Made by a program: the position numbers and the translations under genes. A stretch of 62,715 nucleotides of DNA, taken from a virus. The stretch covers positions 1 to 62,715 of the IMG/VR virus record IMGVR_UViG_3300009146_000014; one strand, given 5' to 3'. The notes beneath the pieces are model-generated. The model made no database searches. It was not told the origin of the DNA and saw only the letters and a program-made list of their open reading frames with translations. Shown here in pieces: positions 4,271-51,602 of the stretch (the first letter of the stretch is position 1; every line of letters begins with the position of its first letter).

Positions 4271-4698
4271 GCCGGCACGACGGCCGGGGCCGCCTCGATG
4301 GCCGCAGCGGCGGCGCGGTGGCTTTCCTCATGCGCGACCGCCTCTTGCATCGCGTCCCAATCGGCGGCGCTCATGTGATGTTTCCAGGCCTCGTCACCGT
4401 ACGGGCAAGCCGGTTCGCGGCAGTGCTCGAAATCGATGTGGATGGTGTGGCCGTGGCCGTAATCGGAGCCGGGGTCGGCGGAGCCATAGGTGCCGATCTG
4501 GATGCCGGCGGCGTTGATGACATCCCAAACCTTGGCGCGCTGCTCTTGAGCCTCGCGGGTGTTGCGGGGGGCGTAGGCGATGTGCAGGCGTACCCAACCG
4601 TATGCCGTGCCGCGCGAGCCGCGCACGGTCACTTTGTGGCCGGGATAGGCAGCGGCGACGGCTTTTTTCAGGGCGCGGTTGCGAGCGGCGATTTCCAT
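4261..4698 (-). CDS. Hypothetical protein, 145 aa, His/Cys-rich C-terminus
   Basis: A 145-aa protein starting MEIAARNRALKKAVAAAYPGHKVTVRGSRG. The N-terminal half has an alpha-beta pattern (KVTVRGSRGTAYGWVRLHIAY). The second half contains YGHGHTIHIDFEHC and CPYGDEAWKHH, a histidine/cysteine-rich stretch that could bind metal. CCGGAGAC precedes the ATG at 4698. It is the first gene behind the promoter at 4741. No family recognised; the HxHxHxD-like arrangement might be enzymatic. Confidence 0.6.
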   Translation of the reverse strand: MEIAARNRALKKAVAAAYPGHKVTVRGSRGTAYGWVRLHIAYAPRNTREAQEQRAKVWDVINAAGIQIGTYGSADPGSDYGHGHTIHIDFEHCREPACPYGDEAWKHHMSAADWDAMQEAVAHEESHRAAAAAIEAAPAVVPAWL

Positions 4699-4740
4699 TT
4701 TCAGTCTCCGGTGTTGGGGGCGCCTCACAACGAAACGCCA

Positions 4741-4789
4741 TGGCCTATATCTAGGCCATGGCGTTGGAGTTGGCAAGGGGGTCTTATCA
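4741..4789 (-). promoter_or_regulatory. Early promoter/operator element P1
   Basis: On the minus strand this reads TGATAAG-N5-CTTGCCA, then 17 bases after TTGCCA a -10-like TAGATA embedded in the palindrome TGGCCTAGATATAGGCCA. Four more copies with exactly the same geometry occur at 5844, 6289, 8092 and 9231. It lies about 45 bases upstream of the gene starting at 4698. It is interpreted as a sigma70-like promoter overlapped by two dyads that probably bind a repressor and a second regulator. Confidence 0.8.
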
Positions 4790-4796
4790 AGTATTT

Positions 4797-4991
4797 TTAG
4801 CCGTGGTCGGTGCGTCCCTTGAGCGGCGCAAAGAAAGCGCGGAAATCGCTTGTCGGGGGCAAGGGTGGCTGACTAGAGACGACGTTGCCGGCGGCTTCCA
4901 GGTCGAGGCGCACGGCCACGGCTTCCATGGTGCCGCGAACGGTCACGTCCAAAACGATGCCGTTGCGGGTATAGGTCAAGACGTATTGCAC
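4797..4991 (-). CDS. Hypothetical protein, 64 aa (GTG start)
   Basis: A 64-aa protein whose N-terminus (QYVLTYTRNGIVLDVTVRG) forms a predicted beta hairpin, followed by a helix (MEAVAVRLDLEAAG). The GTG at 4991 is chosen because AAAAGGAGA lies six bases upstream, one of the strongest ribosome sites in the cluster; no ATG is available in a comparable place. It is the last gene of the unit driven from 5844. Function unknown. Confidence 0.5.
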   Translation of the reverse strand: MQYVLTYTRNGIVLDVTVRGTMEAVAVRLDLEAAGNVVSSQPPLPPTSDFRAFFAPLKGRTDHG

Positions 4992-40998: not shown

Positions 40999-41310
40999 TC
41001 ATTCAAAAAAGTATCGAGCGTTGTGAGCGAGGCACAACGCGAACGGGTCTTGATGGCCACGCATGCGCCACCATTCGAGTTCGTTGCCGAATTGGTGTTG
41101 CGATCGGTGACACGCGGAAGTGAGCGGCAGCGCCCAAAGGTCATCCGGCTTTTCACCGAGTCCACAGTGCCGCTTATCATACGCACGCGAGGCGGCGCGT
41201 AAGTGTGCCGCCTCGCATGGTGGACCGCGCATGCATCCGCAAGCGCAGCGTTGCTTGCGGACCCATGCGAGATATCGGTTATTGATCACTCGTGGGCGAC
41301 GTTGCCTCAT
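40999..41310 (-). CDS. HNH-like (DUF968/Ref-type) nuclease
   Basis: A 103-aa protein: NRYLAWVRKQRCACGC at the start, then EAAHLRAASRAYDKRHCGLGEKPDDLWALPL, and CHRSQHQFGNELEWW. This AHLR...G.KPDD...PL...H..QH layout is the DUF968/Ref-like HNH nuclease family involved in phage recombination. Its ATG overlaps the RecT stop (ATGA). It probably cuts recombination intermediates. Confidence 0.82.
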   Translation of the reverse strand: MRQRRPRVINNRYLAWVRKQRCACGCMRGPPCEAAHLRAASRAYDKRHCGLGEKPDDLWALPLTSACHRSQHQFGNELEWWRMRGHQDPFALCLAHNARYFFE

Positions 41311-41587
41311 TGGCGCCTTTGGCCTTTCGCGGGCGCGGCTTTGCTGCCGGACGCTTTGCTGCCGGCTTTGCTGCCGCCGGCACCGGAGCGGCCACTTTCG
41401 CTCGCGGCTTGCGCGCCTTTTTGTGGTTCGCCGTCTTTGGCAGACTTCGCGCCAGTTGCTTGACGACTCGAGTCAGTTGTAGTGCGTCTCCCTTGGTCGT
41501 TAGCTTCCCGTCCAAGACGAGCGCGAGACTCCCGTCTATCGTTATTGCCGTCAACGAGATTGTCGCCGGCACTTTCGGGTCCGTCAT
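41279..41587 (-). CDS. Overlapping frame: histone H1-like basic protein, putative
   Basis: A 102-aa frame starting MTDPKVPATISLTAITIDGS that lies almost entirely inside the 3' part of recT in another frame. The first half is a well-formed beta-helix pattern (SLALVLDGKLTTKGDALQLTRVVKQLARSL). The tail is Lys/Ala/Pro-rich like histone H1 (AKPAAKRPAAKPRPRKAKG). The RecT frame is low-complexity over exactly this stretch, so dual coding is plausible. No clear ribosome site, so expression is uncertain. Confidence 0.4.
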   Translation of the reverse strand: MTDPKVPATISLTAITIDGSLALVLDGKLTTKGDALQLTRVVKQLARSLPKTANHKKARKPRAKVAAPVPAAAKPAAKRPAAKPRPRKAKGANEATSPTSDQ

Positions 41588-42344
41588 CTTGACTGCCATC
41601 ATCCGCCTCACTTTCTATAACGCGGTTTACGTGCGCGACATCGAATCCACGAGACTGATCTTTCGCACTGTCGCGCAGTCGTTGCGAAAGAGCAGAAACA
41701 CGTTCGTTGACTTCAATCATGTCCTCGCTGGTGGTGATTTCCTCTGGCGTGTAGACGCCGAGCAAAACCTCCGGGCAATGCATGCGCGCCCATTGACGGA
41801 CGGCGGAATAGAAAAGCTGGACCTCCGGTTGGTCATCCCATAGCGGCGAGCCTTTGACGCGGCCTTTGTCGTTGCGGCCTCGCGCATCGCGGAGCTTGCC
41901 GAGCGTCTCTGAAATGTATTCGTGCGGCTTGCTCTCGCCGATGAATAGGCCGGTCACTTTGCAGCGGCGCTCGTCTCCGTCGCCGAGAATCTCAGTTCGC
42001 AACCGGCCTTTGAGCGGTGCCCATCGAATGACGATCGCGTGCACAAGCTGCGATTCGTAGCCGATACGTTCGTCTCCGCCTTGCGTGTAGGCGATATAAG
42101 ATTTCTCGGCGACGGCGTAGGGGTCCATTTGCCAGCGCAGAGCGCGTGAGAGGATGGCGAGGCAGGCGCCGGGATTGCCTCGCAAATACTTGGGCACGGC
42201 AGCGCCGGACACGCTCATGAGCTTCGCAAGCTCGGTGGCTTGGCCCATGTTCTCCGGAGTGATGCCGCCGCCCATCGATTGGATGGGGATTGGTGCAGTA
42301 ACGGCGCGGTCAATGCGCTTCTCGATTTCGCCAACGTCAATCAT
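41307..42344 (-). CDS. recT: RecT-family single-strand annealing protein
   Basis: A 345-aa protein starting MIDVGEIEKRIDRAV. Core motifs: QATELAKLMSVSGAAVPKYLRG, GACLAILSRALRWQMDPYAVAEKSY, and DERIGYESQLVHAIVIRW, then PEVQLFYSAVRQWARMHCPE. It anneals complementary single strands made by the partner exonuclease (45732-46682). The last ~100 residues are polar low complexity. Start and stop both overlap neighbouring genes by ATGA, supporting the full length. Confidence 0.9.
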   Translation of the reverse strand: MIDVGEIEKRIDRAVTAPIPIQSMGGGITPENMGQATELAKLMSVSGAAVPKYLRGNPGACLAILSRALRWQMDPYAVAEKSYIAYTQGGDERIGYESQLVHAIVIRWAPLKGRLRTEILGDGDERRCKVTGLFIGESKPHEYISETLGKLRDARGRNDKGRVKGSPLWDDQPEVQLFYSAVRQWARMHCPEVLLGVYTPEEITTSEDMIEVNERVSALSQRLRDSAKDQSRGFDVAHVNRVIESEADDGSQDDGPESAGDNLVDGNNDRRESRARLGREANDQGRRTTTDSSRQATGAKSAKDGEPQKGAQAASESGRSGAGGSKAGSKASGSKAAPAKGQRRQ

Positions 42345-42727
42345 GGGGTGTTCCCTTTTGCCATGTGCTCGACAAGCTTGAGGATGATGGCGCGCGCCTC
42401 TTGCGACAGTCGGGGCCATTTCGAGGCGACTTTGTATCCGTCGTTGCTCGATAGGAATTTTGCAATCTCCGACTCGCCGGAAGCGCGCACATCGGTTGCG
42501 CGTGGAAAAAACCAACTGATGGGCCGATGCAGAATCGTCACCAAGAGTTCGATGCGCGCGGGTGGGATGCGATCGCCTCCGGATTCGTATTTTTGTAGCT
42601 GTTGATAAGAGACGCCGATTGCGTCGGCGACATCCTTTTGAGAAAGGCCAAGAGCAAGCCGGGCCTCGCGGATGCGAACGCCGATGGCTCGATCGTAATC
42701 GGTTGGATGCCGGCCGGTCGCATTCAT
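42341..42727 (-). CDS. XRE-family repressor-like protein
   Basis: A 128-aa protein with a typical XRE helix-turn-helix at ~15-70 (IREARLALGLSQKDVADAIGVSYQQLQKYESG) and a helical C-terminus (SKWPRLSQEARAIILKLVEHMA). The start at 42727 is fixed by the ATGA overlap with the upstream gene. With no integrase present it is better regarded as an operon regulator than as proof of lysogeny. Confidence 0.85.
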   Translation of the reverse strand: MNATGRHPTDYDRAIGVRIREARLALGLSQKDVADAIGVSYQQLQKYESGGDRIPPARIELLVTILHRPISWFFPRATDVRASGESEIAKFLSSNDGYKVASKWPRLSQEARAIILKLVEHMAKGNTP

Positions 42728-43107
42728 TTTGCTATCGCCGATTTTGGCCCGACTAGGATTGATGGGGGAAGCGGCAGCGCGTGCTTGAGCGGCTTCCACA
42801 AGTGGAGGCAGTGCGGGTGACAATTCACGTACTCCGCTTTCGGTGGGTGATACTGGATGACGGTCTCATTCTCGTGCCAAAAAATGTCTTTGACCCAACA
42901 CATTTCATCCCATGTCGGGCACCGATCGCGCGCCGAGACGCTCACGTGTTCCCAACCGTGCCGCGCATCGACGCCGCTCGAAATGACGAGCAACCGCCCG
43001 AGCGGGCCTTTGAATTGAAACGCGCCTTCGCGCTTGCCGGGCAAGGTCGCATAGTGGCCGTCAAGAATGCGGCACGGCTCGACATCAGGTGAAAGTGTAA
43101 GGCGCAT
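42724..43107 (-). CDS. DUF7694-type phage protein
   Basis: A 127-aa protein with HVSVSARDRCPTWDEMCWVKDIFW, the R.P.W.EM..VK..FW core of a family found next to phage recombination genes, and HPHCLHLWKP near the end. Role unknown. It is the first gene downstream of the guide-RNA array in the direction of transcription, so its mRNA may contain the array as a long leader unless that is processed off. Confidence 0.7.
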   Translation of the reverse strand: MRLTLSPDVEPCRILDGHYATLPGKREGAFQFKGPLGRLLVISSGVDARHGWEHVSVSARDRCPTWDEMCWVKDIFWHENETVIQYHPPKAEYVNCHPHCLHLWKPLKHALPLPPSILVGPKSAIAK

Positions 43108-43113
43108 CAGTCT

Positions 43114-44889
43114 CTCTCGCTCGGGGGTTTCGGTGCTCTCGCTTGGAACGGCTCGCTCTGCGTCTTTGGGTGTCTCGATGTAGATGGCACGGTTCGCTCT
43201 TTTCTTACGGTGCTCTCGACGGTCAAGGCTCGCTCAAAGGATTCGGTGCTCTCGATGTGGGTGGCTCACTCAAAGGATTCGGTGCTCTCGGGATCGATGG
43301 TGGTTTTACTCGATGGCAAATGGCTCGCTCGCTGTATTCGGTGCTCTCATCGGCGAGTGGCTCGCTCGGCGACGATGGTTCTCTCGACGCGAATTGGCTC
43401 GCTCGGTGATTATGGCGCTCTCAACGGACCCGGCTCGCTCGGCGACTACGGTGCTCTCGGTGGCGCGGGCTCGCTCGTCGACGACGGTACTCTCTACGGT
43501 TCGGGCTCGCTCGCTGCTCTCGGTTCTCTCACTTTCACATGGCTCGCTCGCTGCTTTCGGTGCTCTCGCTTGTGCTGGCTCGCTTTGATGGTTCGGATTC
43601 CTCAGTGGTTCGGGCTCGCTCGTCGTATTCGGTGCTCTCGTGGGCAACATGGCTCGCTCTCAGGCAACGGTGCTCTCAGCATTATCGGCTCGCTCACGTA
43701 TTTCGGTTTCTCTCAACGGGGCTGGCTCGCTCATGCGTGACGGGTATTCTCAACGGTGCTGGCTCGCTCTGTGGGTACGGCGCTCTCGGGCAGTATGGCT
43801 CGCGCTCTTGCATTACGGCGAATGTGCTCAAAGGCTTTGGCATCGCTCAAGGGTTGCGGCGCTCTCGGCATAGACGGCTCGCTCAAGTCCAAGTGGTTCT
43901 CTCGGCATAGACGGCTCGCTCAAGGGGTTCCGGTGCTCTCTCTCTGTGTGGCTCGCTCGCAGGGCTGGGTTCTCTCTTGCTTGTTTGGCTCGCTCATTTG
44001 GTTCGGGTGCGCTCGCTTCTAACGGCTCGCTCAACGCGGAATGGTGCTCTCGTCGTGCAAGGCTCGCTCTTAGGTGCTGGTGCTCTCGACGCAGACGGCT
44101 CGCTCTCCCTTTTCGGTTCTCTCAATTGCAAAGGCTCGCTTGCAGCAGACGGTTCTCTCGTGCGCTACGGCTCGCTCGTCGGTTTCGGTGCTCTCTGCGC
44201 TTAGGGCGCGCTCAACGAAATTGGTTCTCTCGTGGGGCTCGGCTCGCTCTGTGTTCTGTGGTTCGCTCTCGGGATATGGCTCGCTCTCGCTATCCGGTAC
44301 TCTCATGGCAAAGGCGGCTCGCTCGTTGGGCTCGGTGCTCTCTTTGGCCTCTGGCTCGCTCGATGATATTGATGCGACTCGCTTGAGACGGCTCGCTCGT
44401 TGTTTTCGGCGCTCTCTCGCTGATGGGCTCGCTCGTTGTCTCCGGGTTCTCTCTATGAGTACGGCGCGCTCACGTCCTACGGTGCTCTCTCGGATTACAG
44501 GCTCGCTCGTTTGCTCCGGGCTCTCTCGACTGATTCGGCGCGCTCGCGCTTATCGGTGCTCTTGCATCATGTGGCTCGCTCAGGAGAGAACGGTTCTCTC
44601 ATCTCTCTAGGCTCGCTCATGGGTTTCGGGTGTCTCGTGTGTCATGGCTCGCTCATTTGGCTCGGTGCTCTCTCGCTGATTGTGGCTCGCTCGCATTTCT
44701 GGTGCTTGCTCTATTTCGACGGCTCGCTCATTTGGCTCGGTTCTCTCTCGCTGTACGGCGCGCTCGCGAAGCATGGTGCTCTCGGTCCGATTGGCTCGTT
44801 CAACTCCGATGGTGCTCTCGGGGATTACGACTCGCTCAAAGCTTAGGCTCGCTCGCGAAGCATGGTGCTCTCTGGTCTTACGGCTTAAT
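43114..44889 (-). repeat. TIGR-type array: about 48 units of 36 nt, dual 9-nt spacers
   Basis: Plus-strand reading: GGCTCGCTC, 9 variable bases, GGTGCTCTC, 9 variable bases, repeated about 48 times in 1.77 kb. The first repeat is nearly invariant (a few GGCGCGCTC, GGCTCACTC, GGCTCGCTT). The second varies at positions 3-4 (GGTTCTCTC, GGCGCTCTC, GGTACTCTC). Spacers are mostly 9 nt, sometimes 10 or 11, and nearly all different. The length changes break every reading frame on both strands, so it is not a protein repeat. The last degenerate repeat lies in the 3' end of the Nop-domain gene. This is the layout of tandem interspaced guide RNA (TIGR) arrays, whose 36-nt tigRNAs carry two spacers. Transcription with the tas gene (minus strand) is inferred. 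Confidence 0.88.
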
Positions 44890-45735
44890 CAAATGCGCGT
44901 GCCCAAGGTGCGCGATGGCGTACGGCATCGGCGGCTCGATGTTGAGGATGCGCCGACACATTTCGCCATGCAGATGGGCGAGGAAAATTTTGACGGCGTA
45001 GCGCCGCGCCATCGCGTGAATGCGACCGGGCGGATACTTGCCGACGCTATACGCTTTATAGGCCTCGGTTTCCTTCCGGTACTTTTTCGCCAGCAACGTG
45101 GCTGCCGCCTTTTCGGCATAGTCGCCGCGCTCGTTGCGCTCGATGTAGACGGCTTTTTGCTTGGCCCATATGTGCCCGTAGACGCACTTCTCATGATTGT
45201 GGAATTTGACGAACGACTCGCCGGCCTTCCAACAAATCACCTTGAGCGATGCATTCCAGGGCCGCTTGGTTTTCGGTGCCCATGTCACGGTTGGATCAAG
45301 CCCGGCGAATCGCCAGATGTGCCCGACTGTCGGCGCCTTGTTGATGTCGATGTGCGCGAGCAAGCCGGCGGCAATCACCGGGCCGATGCCGTGCACGGAC
45401 ACGAGCCACTCGCCAACCGGATGCGATTCGACATACTTGCCGAGCGCGCGCTTGATTTGGCCTTCAAGCGTTTCCGTCTGAGTGGCGAACCATTGCAAGA
45501 CGGAGTGCGGCTCGATGGCCTTGGCGACCTCGCCGGTTTTGTCGTCAACGGTCTCGATGGGGTTTTGCTGGATTGAGCGGATTTGCCCATCGCTCCGGAT
45601 GCGCTGCTCTTGTTGTTGGTAGTAGGTATCAACGAGAAAGCGAACCTCCGCCTCGCTCAAGGTGACAGAGGCGCTCGCGATGTCGCGGGTTAGCCGTTGG
45701 ATGGGTGTCGTTGCAATCGTCGTGTCCGTGCTCAT
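44878..45735 (-). CDS. tasA: Tas protein of a TIGR-Tas system (Nop domain, no nuclease)
   Basis: A 285-aa protein. Residues ~105-150 contain HGIGPVIAAGLLAHID (115-130) and WRFAGLDP (141-148), the helix-hairpin-helix core shared by Nop56/58-type snoRNP proteins and the C-terminal domain of IS110-family transposases. An N-terminal helical region (~10-100) and a basic C-terminal region (AEKAAATLLAKKYRKETEAYK) flank it. No DEDD/RuvC catalytic set and no HNH motif is visible, so it matches the stand-alone TasA type. It is the 3'-adjacent partner of the 36-nt array and is ATGA-coupled to the exonuclease gene. Expected role: RNA-guided DNA binding by paired 9-nt guides. A lone IS110 relic is unlikely because the N-terminal DEDD domain is absent. 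Confidence 0.82.
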   Translation of the reverse strand: MSTDTTIATTPIQRLTRDIASASVTLSEAEVRFLVDTYYQQQEQRIRSDGQIRSIQQNPIETVDDKTGEVAKAIEPHSVLQWFATQTETLEGQIKRALGKYVESHPVGEWLVSVHGIGPVIAAGLLAHIDINKAPTVGHIWRFAGLDPTVTWAPKTKRPWNASLKVICWKAGESFVKFHNHEKCVYGHIWAKQKAVYIERNERGDYAEKAAATLLAKKYRKETEAYKAYSVGKYPPGRIHAMARRYAVKIFLAHLHGEMCRRILNIEPPMPYAIAHLGHAHLIKP

Positions 45736-46682
45736 GGTCCGCCTCCGGGTAGCTCTCGGGTTAAACGTGCGTCAATGCGGGCGCGCTCATCCGTGGCCAA
45801 CGGGAGCGAGCGCAAATCATTCTCCGCCGGACCGGGCCAATGATCCTCGCGGATGCACGAGGCGATCTTGCGGAGCATGGCGCGGTTCTGTAATCGGCCG
45901 CGCGCCAAATCGTCGGGGTCAACCGGGACGGCGCGCGCACAGTACGGTGGCGCCGTCTCGATAAACATCAGAGTGAAAAACTGGAAAGGCGCGGTCGGGT
46001 CGATGACTTCCACGGCTTCCCAAATCAGTGCCGCTTGCTGGTGATAGGCGTAGGCACGGATTGCGTATTGCAGCGCCGGGCTTGTGACCTCCGCCGCAGT
46101 TTTTAAATCCACGTAGTCTCCGCCATCGGTCGGGATGACATCGGGCCGAACCTTTACCCAAAGGTCGGTCTCCGGGTGCTTGAAGAATCCAGAGACCTCG
46201 ATGTGACCGCGCAGAATGCCGGCATTGATGAGCGGCTCAAGGGTGAGCGATCGGGCCATGCCGACAATGTGCTCAAGCTCCGCTTGCGTGACGATCACGC
46301 GGCCAAGCTTGGTTTGCTCTGCCGCCCATTGCCGGCACGGCTTGGCGTTGCCATTCCACGGCTTTGTCTCGGCGGTGGTTCGGTCGCGATAGGTCGCGGG
46401 CTGCTTTGAGAAGCGGAGCCGGAATCCATCCTCGCCGAGAAACAGATGATGCGCTGCCGCGCCGAGTATCATAGCGCGAGTCGTCTTGCGCGGAATCGCT
46501 TTCGGGTTCTCAACCCATGTCGAAAACATATGCGCGGCGGATTTCGACCAACACGTGCGCAAGTCGGTGGACGATACGGCGAGGCCTTTGCATATGCCGC
46601 GCGAGTGATAGCGATCGATGGGGATGCCGCTATACCAACCGGGCTTGGTGATCGGCTTGCCATTCCACTTCGTGATGATCAT
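45732..46682 (-). CDS. PD-(D/E)XK exonuclease, RecE/ExoVIII-like
   Basis: A 316-aa protein. RecB-type motifs: ILGAAAHHLFLGEDGF (72-87, G..xH..L), E162, D181 in VKVRPDVIP, and D192-x-K194 in YVDLKTA, then QYAIRAYAYHQQAALIWEAV, the conserved Q...Y motif. This is the DUF3799-type nuclease that resects double-strand ends for RecT. Start at 46682 by ATGA overlap with the upstream gene. Confidence 0.88.
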   Translation of the reverse strand: MIITKWNGKPITKPGWYSGIPIDRYHSRGICKGLAVSSTDLRTCWSKSAAHMFSTWVENPKAIPRKTTRAMILGAAAHHLFLGEDGFRLRFSKQPATYRDRTTAETKPWNGNAKPCRQWAAEQTKLGRVIVTQAELEHIVGMARSLTLEPLINAGILRGHIEVSGFFKHPETDLWVKVRPDVIPTDGGDYVDLKTAAEVTSPALQYAIRAYAYHQQAALIWEAVEVIDPTAPFQFFTLMFIETAPPYCARAVPVDPDDLARGRLQNRAMLRKIASCIREDHWPGPAENDLRSLPLATDERARIDARLTRELPGGGP

Positions 46683-47101
46683 GGGCGCATCATTCCTTTC
46701 GGTGCAGGTTCGGGCCAATGCCAAGTCACGATGCCGTTCGCGGATATGACGGGCCGTTGCACGGCGCCCGTCCAAATGGCGCGCTCGATCGCGTCTTGGT
46801 CGTTGCCGAACCACGTCACGAGCGGCACGCAATCGATGCTCACGGTTTCGCCGATGTCATCGGCGGCGTACGCGATGCACGTGCCGGCGATCAACCGGCC
46901 GCACATGCCGAAATAGCGTTGCTGGCTTACCGGCGTGAACAGGCCAAACTCATGCACGATGTAGCCCATGCCGATGGCGCGAATATAGCCGTGGTCACAA
47001 TGCAAGGGGTCGAGGCCGGCGGCTGGATACACGTCGGCAAGGTCGTCGGCGTTGTACTCAACAATGGTGCGGGCAAGCGGGCTGATGATGAGGAAAAGCA
47101 T
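46679..47101 (-). CDS. Hypothetical protein, 140 aa
   Basis: A 140-aa protein starting MLFLIISPLARTIVEYNADDLAD. Alternating short strands and helices, with VSIDCVPLVTWFGNDQDAIERAIW near the end. CCCGGAGGCG precedes the ATG at 47101. The first ten residues are hydrophobic but too short for a signal peptide. ATGA-coupled to the exonuclease gene, so it may be a cofactor of recombination. No family recognised. Confidence 0.6.
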   Translation of the reverse strand: MLFLIISPLARTIVEYNADDLADVYPAAGLDPLHCDHGYIRAIGMGYIVHEFGLFTPVSQQRYFGMCGRLIAGTCIAYAADDIGETVSIDCVPLVTWFGNDQDAIERAIWTGAVQRPVISANGIVTWHWPEPAPKGMMRP

Positions 47102-49849: not shown

Positions 49850-49891
49850 GGCCGCGACCCCCGTCGAAGGGAGTCGCGGCCTCTTTTTTTT
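49850..49891 (+). terminator. Strong intrinsic terminator
   Basis: GGCCGCGAC (49850-49858) pairs with GTCGCGGCC (49873-49881), followed by TC and eight Ts. It ends the two-gene rightward unit and meets the end of the leftward reductase gene, whose stop codon overlaps the T-run. Confidence 0.92.
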
Positions 49892-51602
49892 ACGCGGCGC
49901 TCACAGCGGCGCATCCGCCTTCGTCGCAATCGATCAAAGGGGTTCCCGAGTTATCGTCGGTTTTTTGCAAGAGCGCGCCGCGCTTGCCTCCGACTTGGAA
50001 CGTCGCGCAAGATTTGCATCCGCGTTCGAAGGCGTCGAAGTAGAGCGCTTGGAAGTCTCGCCACGCCATATCACTCGGGACGTTGGCTGTCTTAGAAACA
50101 GCCGAGTCAGTGTGCTTTTGAGCGCAGGCCAATACAGAAATATGCTCTTGAGCAGAAATTTCTGAAGCCTCGCGCGGAGATACGCCAAGCACTGCGAACC
50201 CGTAGTCTTGGACATCATAGGTCGTTGGTCCCGATGGCATTTGCACGACGCGCTTGCCCGACACTGCAAACACGGGCTCGATGCCGCTACTGATGTTGTC
50301 GTGCACGAACGAAATCGTGCCGGTCGGCGCAATGCTTATCAGATGCGAGTTGCGGACGCCATGTTCGGCGATGGCCGCTTGCACGTCGGCGCGTAGCGTG
50401 CGGATGAACGGTTGTGAGTGATACGCTTGCGTGATGGCCGGGGCCGCGCCTTTCTCTTTCGCGAGCATGGCCGATGCGTGGTAGGCCGCATTCTTGAGAA
50501 CGCCGAGCGTTTCATCGAGCAACTCAATAAAGCCTTCCGTGCCGTACGGGTGGCCGCACGCTTCAAGCGCGTTCGCGGTGCCCATGACGCCGAGACCCAT
50601 CCGGCGAGTCGCAATCGCTTGCTGCCGTTGCTCGGGCAGCGGGTAGGACGCAACATCGGTCACGTTGTCCATGCCGCGCACGACGCCGGGCACATCGTCG
50701 GCAAGCATGTCGAGGTCGAGCCGCCATTTCTTGCCGGGTCCGGCGGGCTGCAAATACTTGGTGAGGTTGAACGAACCGAGCAAGCACGCGCCGAACGGAG
50801 GAAGCGGTTGCTCGCTACATGGGTTCGTGGCGGCAATCGTCTCGCAATAGTTGAGGTTGTTCCACTCGTTGACTCGATCGATGAAGATCACGCCGGGCTC
50901 TGCCCAATCCCATGCGCTCCGCATGATTTGCTCCCATAGAGCGGCGGCATCAATCTCTCGATAAGGCTTGCCTTCGAACCGCAGTGTAAAGGGTCGGCCG
51001 TGCTTGACCGCGTGCATAAACTCGTCGGTGATGGCGATCGACAGATTGAACGTGTTGAGCCGGTCGGAATTTTGCTTGGCGTGTATAAATTCCTCGATGT
51101 CCGGATGATCCACGCGCAAGACGCCCATCATCGCGCCTCGCCGTTCGCCAGACGATGAAATCGTGTCGGCCATCGCGTGATAAACATTCATGTAAGAGCA
51201 CGGGCCAGACGCACGCGAGTCGAGCGAGCGAACCTTGTCATTGCGCGGTCGGATGGTGGAAAAGTCGTAGCCGATGCCGCCGCCACGCCGAAGAGTCTCG
51301 GCGGCTTGCGCGAGGCGGTCCATGATTGAGCCGGGGCCATTGAGCGAGTCTTCGATGGGGCCGGACACGAAACAGTTATAGGGAGTGGTTCGCTTGGTGG
51401 TGCCGAGACCGGCGAGGATGCGGCCGGCGGGCGAGAATCGGCCGTCGAGCATGATGGAACGAAAGGCTCGATAGTGCTTGTCGTCATCGGCGAGCATCGC
51501 GGCGACGCGATTGCAGACATCGCGCTTTGTCTCGTTGCGTTGCGCATACTTGAATTGGAAAACGGCGGCGGCTGCCGGAGTCAGTGGTCCGTGCTTGTCC
51601 AT
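49890..51602 (-). CDS. nrdJ: Adenosylcobalamin-dependent (class II) ribonucleotide reductase
   Basis: A 570-aa enzyme. Marks: RFSPAGRILAGLGT, YNCFVSGPIEDS (Cys77, redox partner), RRGGGIGYDFS, SGERRGAMMGVL, the radical loop ATNPCSEQPLPP (Cys262, Glu264), and ISIAPTGTISFVHDNISSGIEP. The C-terminus ends CDEGGC, the thiol shuttle. It makes deoxyribonucleotides without oxygen using host B12. No dATP-binding cone is visible at the N-terminus, so feedback control seems reduced, useful for a phage. Own promoter in the 51603-51703 gap. Confidence 0.95.
   Translation of the reverse strand: MDKHGPLTPAAAAVFQFKYAQRNETKRDVCNRVAAMLADDDKHYRAFRSIMLDGRFSPAGRILAGLGTTKRTTPYNCFVSGPIEDSLNGPGSIMDRLAQAAETLRRGGGIGYDFSTIRPRNDKVRSLDSRASGPCSYMNVYHAMADTISSSGERRGAMMGVLRVDHPDIEEFIHAKQNSDRLNTFNLSIAITDEFMHAVKHGRPFTLRFEGKPYREIDAAALWEQIMRSAWDWAEPGVIFIDRVNEWNNLNYCETIAATNPCSEQPLPPFGACLLGSFNLTKYLQPAGPGKKWRLDLDMLADDVPGVVRGMDNVTDVASYPLPEQRQQAIATRRMGLGVMGTANALEACGHPYGTEGFIELLDETLGVLKNAAYHASAMLAKEKGAAPAITQAYHSQPFIRTLRADVQAAIAEHGVRNSHLISIAPTGTISFVHDNISSGIEPVFAVSGKRVVQMPSGPTTYDVQDYGFAVLGVSPREASEISAQEHISVLACAQKHTDSAVSKTANVPSDMAWRDFQALYFDAFERGCKSCATFQVGGKRGALLQKTDDNSGTPLIDCDEGGCAAVSAA

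What the first reader, a model, noticed from the sequence alone, without database searches (positions are those of the whole stretch)
43114..45735. A TIGR-Tas system: 36-nt dual-spacer array next to a Nop-domain protein
Seen directly: about 48 units of GGCTCGCTC-N9-GGTGCTCTC-N9 (roughly 95 spacers) abut a gene whose product has HGIGPVIAAGLLAHID and FAGLDP, the Nop/IS110 helix-hairpin-helix core. Known: TIGR-Tas systems (tandem interspaced guide RNA arrays with Tas proteins related to box C/D snoRNP Nop proteins and IS110 enzymes) are described from phages and parasitic bacteria, and process into 36-nt RNAs with two spacers. Inference: this is a nuclease-less TasA-type member that binds DNA at sites specified by spacer pairs. 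The array is long for a phage element and lies inside a RecT/exonuclease operon, which suggests a role in phage-phage competition, gene silencing or recombination.
Basis: partly seen in the sequence, partly recalled or inferred. Interest (0 to 1): 0.97.

Follow-up and report, generated by a model that had tools for sequence, protein, structure and literature searches.

The report
Phage TIGR-TasA RNA-guided system
A bacterial virus carries about 47 paired mini-guides next to a protein related to RNA-guided DNA-binding proteins; it is a well-formed member of the recently described TIGR-Tas family, and its relatives show that the two spacers of a guide are inherited together, although what the guides aim at is still unknown.

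Summary
On the minus strand, straight after a 285-aa gene, lie 94 alternating repeats (GAGCGAGCC / GAGAGCACC), about 47 units. The protein is a Tas protein: an AlphaFold model (pLDDT 90.5) matches nine solved TasH/TasR chains first (E about 1e-7 to 3e-6), then IS621. It has no HNH or RuvC domain, so it is TasA-type. The edge repeat is almost identical to that of Salicola phage CGphi29, the published SpTIGR. About 100 of 105 related loci carry the same kind of array.
Three things go beyond filing it. (1) Comparing sibling phages, the two spacers around GAGAGCACC are gained and lost together (91 of 95 array pairs; pure indels 57 even, 3 odd), which independently identifies edge, loop and unit. 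(2) The 5' truncated edge repeat is fused to the end of tas. (3) In sibling phages the exonuclease-HTH-RecT operon lacks tas, so the cassette is an accessory insertion; the operon is weak evidence for a recombination role.
No target was found in the window, in over 2 Mb of related loci, or in sibling phages. One clade gives a lead: terminal units match the array trailer of a sibling. Function stays inferred.

The parts
44878..45735 (-). tasA, 285 aa, Nop-domain protein without a nuclease domain; its start overlaps the exonuclease stop by 4 nt (ATGA)
44882..44885 (-). 5' truncated edge repeat (AGCC) embedded in the last Lys-Pro codons of tasA; the first spacer GTAAGACCA (44873-44881) contains the tasA stop codon
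   Evidence: same arrangement in L082, L085, L088, L091, L093
43117..44885 (-). TIGR dual-repeat array, about 47 units of edge (GAGCGAGCC) - spacer A - loop (GAGAGCACC) - spacer B
43117..43122 (-). 3' truncated edge repeat GAGCGA; the next gene starts 9 nt further on, with no terminator found between
45732..46832 (-). exonuclease VIII-like gene upstream of tasA
42724..43107 (-). DUF7694 gene directly after the array
42341..42823 (-). HTH regulator gene
41307..42515 (-). RecT-like annealing protein gene

Best explanation
This is a phage-borne TIGR-TasA system. The array is co-transcribed with tasA in a minus-strand early operon and cut into 36-37-nt RNAs, each holding two 8-9-nt spacers around one loop repeat. 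A TasA dimer holds one such RNA and binds a 16-18-bp DNA site whose two strands pair with the two spacers (top strand = spacer A followed by the reverse complement of spacer B). Having no nuclease, it most likely acts by occupying or bending the site, which would block transcription or replication of competing elements. Shown here: protein family, fold, array anatomy, unit inheritance, accessory status. Inferred from the published systems: co-transcription, processing, dimer, DNA binding. Speculative (about 40%): interference with other mobile elements.
For: Phmmer finds TasR 9mty (1e-13) and TasH 21kl (1e-8); the profile gives 5.7e-22 and 1e-14, then IS621. The predicted structure has pLDDT 90.5, and its first nine PDB matches are all TasH/TasR. 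No RuvC or HNH family is matched, and the TasR and TasH alignments start after their nuclease domains. The CGphi29 array has edge AAGCGAGCCA and loop AAGACAACCA. In related phages, spacers flanking the loop repeat are more concordant in 91 of 95 array pairs, and indels are even-sized 57:3. About 100 of 105 loci have arrays. The tree places the protein with the dual-repeat Tas proteins.
Against: No RNA or binding data exist for this locus. No natural target was found. The window's spacers have an unusual positional bias, the strongest of all arrays tested, which is not explained.
Confidence: 0.87

Rival explanations
1. The array is a coding or structural DNA repeat, and the Nop protein is an unrelated IS110-type transposase fragment.
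For: Pfam names the protein Transposase_20. On the plus strand the array has few stops and reads as a GSLxxxGALxxx-like hexapeptide pattern.
Against: Stops occur in all frames and unit lengths mix 36 and 37 nt. Tas structures outrank IS621 by orders of magnitude. The same array sits beside the same protein in about 100 loci with near-random spacers.
Confidence: 0.03
2. TasA-tigRNA regulates the phage's own genes or aids its own recombination or integration rather than acting on competitors.
For: The locus lies in an early replication/recombination operon. Neighbour tallies in relatives include RecE/RecT/Sak, helicases and polymerases. The tas gene of mycobacteriophage Barriga also overlaps an exonuclease gene.
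Against: No unit matches its own genome above the shuffled control. Sibling phages keep the operon without tas. Spacers turn over fast between siblings.
Confidence: 0.2
3. The array is decaying and no longer functional in this phage.
For: Several irregular units and spacers of 8-11 nt occur in the window, and box C is CCG/CCA rather than the more uniform CCA of relatives.
Against: tasA is intact with invariant residues kept, and most repeats have 0-1 mismatches to the consensus.
Confidence: 0.12

Closest known systems
SpTIGR-TasH of Salicola phage CGphi29 (Faure et al. 2025, PMC12045711)
   Same: Edge repeat core GCGAGCC, loop repeat ending in CC(A), about 36-nt units, Nop domain, phage origin, array shortly after tas
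   Different: TasH has an N-terminal HNH nuclease; the window protein has none. CGphi29 has about 7 units and a terminator; the window has about 47 and none
TIGR-TasA of Flavonifractor plautii and tasParB-linked TasA loci (PMC12045711)
   Same: Solo Nop domain with a dual-repeat array; the array lies beside the gene
   Different: No ParB-like gene was found next to the window tasA; longer array.
IS110/IS621 bridge-RNA recombinases
   Same: Shared Nop-like RNA-binding core (8.7e-5; E 0.027)
   Different: No DEDD/RuvC domain, and an array instead of one bridge RNA
Stem-loop TIGR-TasA of actinophages (Barriga, Morrissey, Peregrin)
   Same: Distant TasA relatives with paired spacers
   Different: Spacers sit in hairpin loops, not between dual repeats; separate branch of the tree

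Membership tests
TIGR-Tas | Nop-domain Tas protein related to TasR/TasH | tested here: met
TIGR-Tas | Adjacent array of two alternating 8-12-nt repeats with about 9-nt spacers | tested here: met
TIGR-Tas | Array begins and ends with truncated edge repeats | tested here: met
   AGCC at 44885-44882, GAGCGA at 43122-43117
TIGR-Tas | Terminator after the array (typical, not universal) | tested here: not met
   none found between array and next gene; the array is inside an operon
TIGR-Tas | Box motifs shared between edge and loop repeats | tested here: met
   both start GAG and end CC; relatives mostly CCA
TIGR-Tas | Processing into 36-nt tigRNAs bound by Tas | not testable with these tools
   needs RNA sequencing; unit inheritance agrees with the predicted unit
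TIGR-Tas | Tandem-spacer DNA targeting of both strands | tested here: inconclusive
   no targets above control; one clade-specific lead
TasA subtype | No HNH or RuvC nuclease domain | tested here: met
IS110 transposase | N-terminal DEDD/RuvC catalytic domain | tested here: not met
   the protein starts with the coiled-coil helices and only the C-terminal family matches

The most novel reading that the evidence does not exclude
TIGR-TasA arrays in phages are weapons against sibling phages: a terminal guide of one phage matches the trailer just after the array of a sibling, while its own copy of that site is changed. To my knowledge this would be the first natural TIGR target.
Probability: 0.12. 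Interest if true: 0.85.

Novelty: new member of a known kind. Interest (0 to 1): 0.47.

Why it matters
TIGR-Tas was described in 2025, and its authors list targets, array growth and TasA function as open (PMC12045711). This locus belongs to a large phage clade (282 relatives in IMG/VR with one profile scan) in which sibling arrays can be compared. That comparison shows paired inheritance of spacers in the array interior and local unit duplication, and it offers a concrete place to look for targets.

Tried and rejected
Target searches as A + rc(B), with flipped geometry and shuffled partners as controls: own genome (best scores equal to control); 1.19 Mb of Tas loci (no excess); 2.27 Mb pool (14 exact 16-mers outside self and host against 5.3 in shuffled pairs, but several hits are duplicates; flipped geometry 4 against 3); same-clade contigs (15-16/16 hits 10 against 9.5); sibling phages found by terminase (6 against 4.3). 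Four units of mycobacteriophage Barriga and two of Gordonia phage Morrissey against 50,697 phage records gave one 17-nt match, in Caulobacter phages, taken as chance. A scan for relatives of the exonuclease found none. Rfam found nothing. PADLOC has no model matching Tas. Shuffling partners in clades with few units is a weak test because original pairs recur.

Full report
What is there. On the minus strand of a 62.7-kb phage genome record (G000) runs an operon of exonuclease VIII (46832-45732), tasA (45735-44878), the array (44885-43117), DUF7694 (43107-42724), an HTH regulator and RecT. The exonuclease stop and the tasA start overlap by four bases. The array holds 94 alternating repeats, GAGCGAGCC and GAGAGCACC, with spacers mostly of 9 nt; edge-to-edge distance is 36 nt 22 times and 37 nt 18 times. 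It is not coding: stops occur in every frame.

The protein. One sequence against the PDB finds TasR (9mty, 1.1e-13) and TasH (21kl, 1.3e-8); a profile of 41 relatives gives 5.7e-22 and 1e-14, then IS621 at 8.7e-5. The AlphaFold2 model (pLDDT 90.5, pTM 0.84) has two long helices joined by a beta hairpin, which I read as the Nop coiled coil, followed by a helical domain. Foldseek's first nine hits are TasH and TasR chains (2e-7 to 3e-6), then IS621 and ISCro4. No member of the profile matches a RuvC or HNH family, and the TasR and TasH alignments begin only after their nuclease domains. It is therefore a TasA-type protein in the terms of Faure et al. (PMC12045711).

The array as a TIGR array. 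Faure et al. describe truncated edge repeats at both ends. Here the 5' one (AGCC) lies inside the last codons of tasA (AAG CCG TAA) and the first spacer contains the stop codon. In relatives the first full repeat starts exactly 12 nt after the tas stop in 37 of 83 downstream arrays, so box C of the truncated repeat abuts the stop codon; a close fusion of gene end and array start is a clade feature. The 3' one (GAGCGA) is followed 9 nt later by the next start codon, without a terminator. The array of Salicola phage CGphi29, a system shown experimentally to be processed (PMC12045711), has edge AAGCGAGCCA and loop AAGACAACCA, close to the window.

Relatives. One profile scan of IMG/VR confirmed 282 relatives; copies also occur in genomes of Acidobacteriaceae KBS 96, Halomonas sp. 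NO4 and Candidatus Propionivibrio aalborgensis. Of 105 fetched loci (some from the same contig), 100 show a periodic dual-repeat array; two of the other five end at tas. Median size is about 20 units and the largest about 57, so 47 is long but not exceptional. In a tree the window groups with L032 (67% identity) among the dual-repeat Tas proteins, apart from actinophage TasA proteins, whose flanks, in the three where I could read hairpins (Barriga, Morrissey, Peregrin), look like stem-loop arrays. The placing of the long CGphi29 branch is unsure.

Natural genetics of the unit. Among 95 pairs of related but different arrays (pairs overlap in membership, so they are not independent), neighbouring spacers separated by GAGAGCACC-type repeats are shared or lost together far more than those separated by GAGCGAGCC-type repeats (discordance 0.39 against 0.72; lower in 91 of 95 pairs), and pure indels involve an even number of spacers 57 times and an odd number 3 times. 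This identifies GAGCGAGCC as edge, GAGAGCACC as loop, and the edge-to-edge piece as the heritable unit, without any RNA data. Differences lie throughout the array, not only at one end. Same-type spacers one or two units apart are near-identical about 20 times more often than background (0.9-1.0% against 0.05%), so local unit duplication contributes, most clearly in the window (5% at one unit; small numbers).

Targets. Using the geometry that I inferred from the published 8-nt 3' overhangs (A followed by rc(B)), no unit of the window matches its own genome or the fetched parts of sibling phages beyond shuffled controls, and relatives show no clear excess either. One lead stands out by position: the last unit of L091 matches 16 of 16 core bases 9 nt after the detected array end in siblings L082 and L093, and the last unit of L088 matches 15 of 16 bases 23 nt further on in L082, whereas L091's and L088's own trailers are altered there. 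A rough expectation for two such hits over all flank tests is about 1e-4 (my estimate, made after seeing the hits). Exchange of sequence between trailer and last unit is an equally possible origin, and no other clade shows it.

Role. Sibling phages found by terminase (56-80% identity) lack Tas in 22 of 22 contigs, though some contigs may be fragments; 12 of 22 have RecT. Of the six RecT loci inspected, four show the exonuclease in the same order before HTH and/or RecT, with no Tas match in between. The cassette is therefore most likely an accessory insertion, and the recombination setting does not by itself argue for a recombination function. I favour RNA-guided DNA occupancy against competing elements, at modest confidence for the purpose and high confidence for the family.

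Noticed in passing
L022:7962-10097 and L023:7551-9758: Two TasA genes are interrupted by inteins with LAGLIDADG and splicing domains, at different sites.
   Followed up: partly
L307:3600-3940, L309:3580-3860 and 4690-4850, L310:3490-3920: Cultured actinophages (Mycobacterium phage Barriga, Gordonia phage Morrissey, Rhodococcus phage Peregrin) carry TasA homologues beside hairpin arrays whose loops hold paired spacers after CCA; 76 Mycobacterium phage records match the Mvi-JY20 TasA. A tractable host system.
   Followed up: partly
L024:5641-5962: The cultured Microcystis phage Mvi-JY20 has an unannotated TIGR-TasA locus with 9 units and a terminator.
   Followed up: partly
window 43122-44872: Spacers of the window are the most position-biased of all arrays (B: A/T at position 2, C at 6, no G at 9; z 9.6), unlike the near-random spacers of relatives. 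Unexplained.
   Followed up: partly
L091:7185-7240 against L082:3749-3790 and L093:2674: Terminal units match the array trailer of sibling phages.
   Followed up: partly
window 49890-51602: The phage carries a ribonucleotide reductase gene on the minus strand, upstream of the exonuclease-tasA operon.
   Followed up: no
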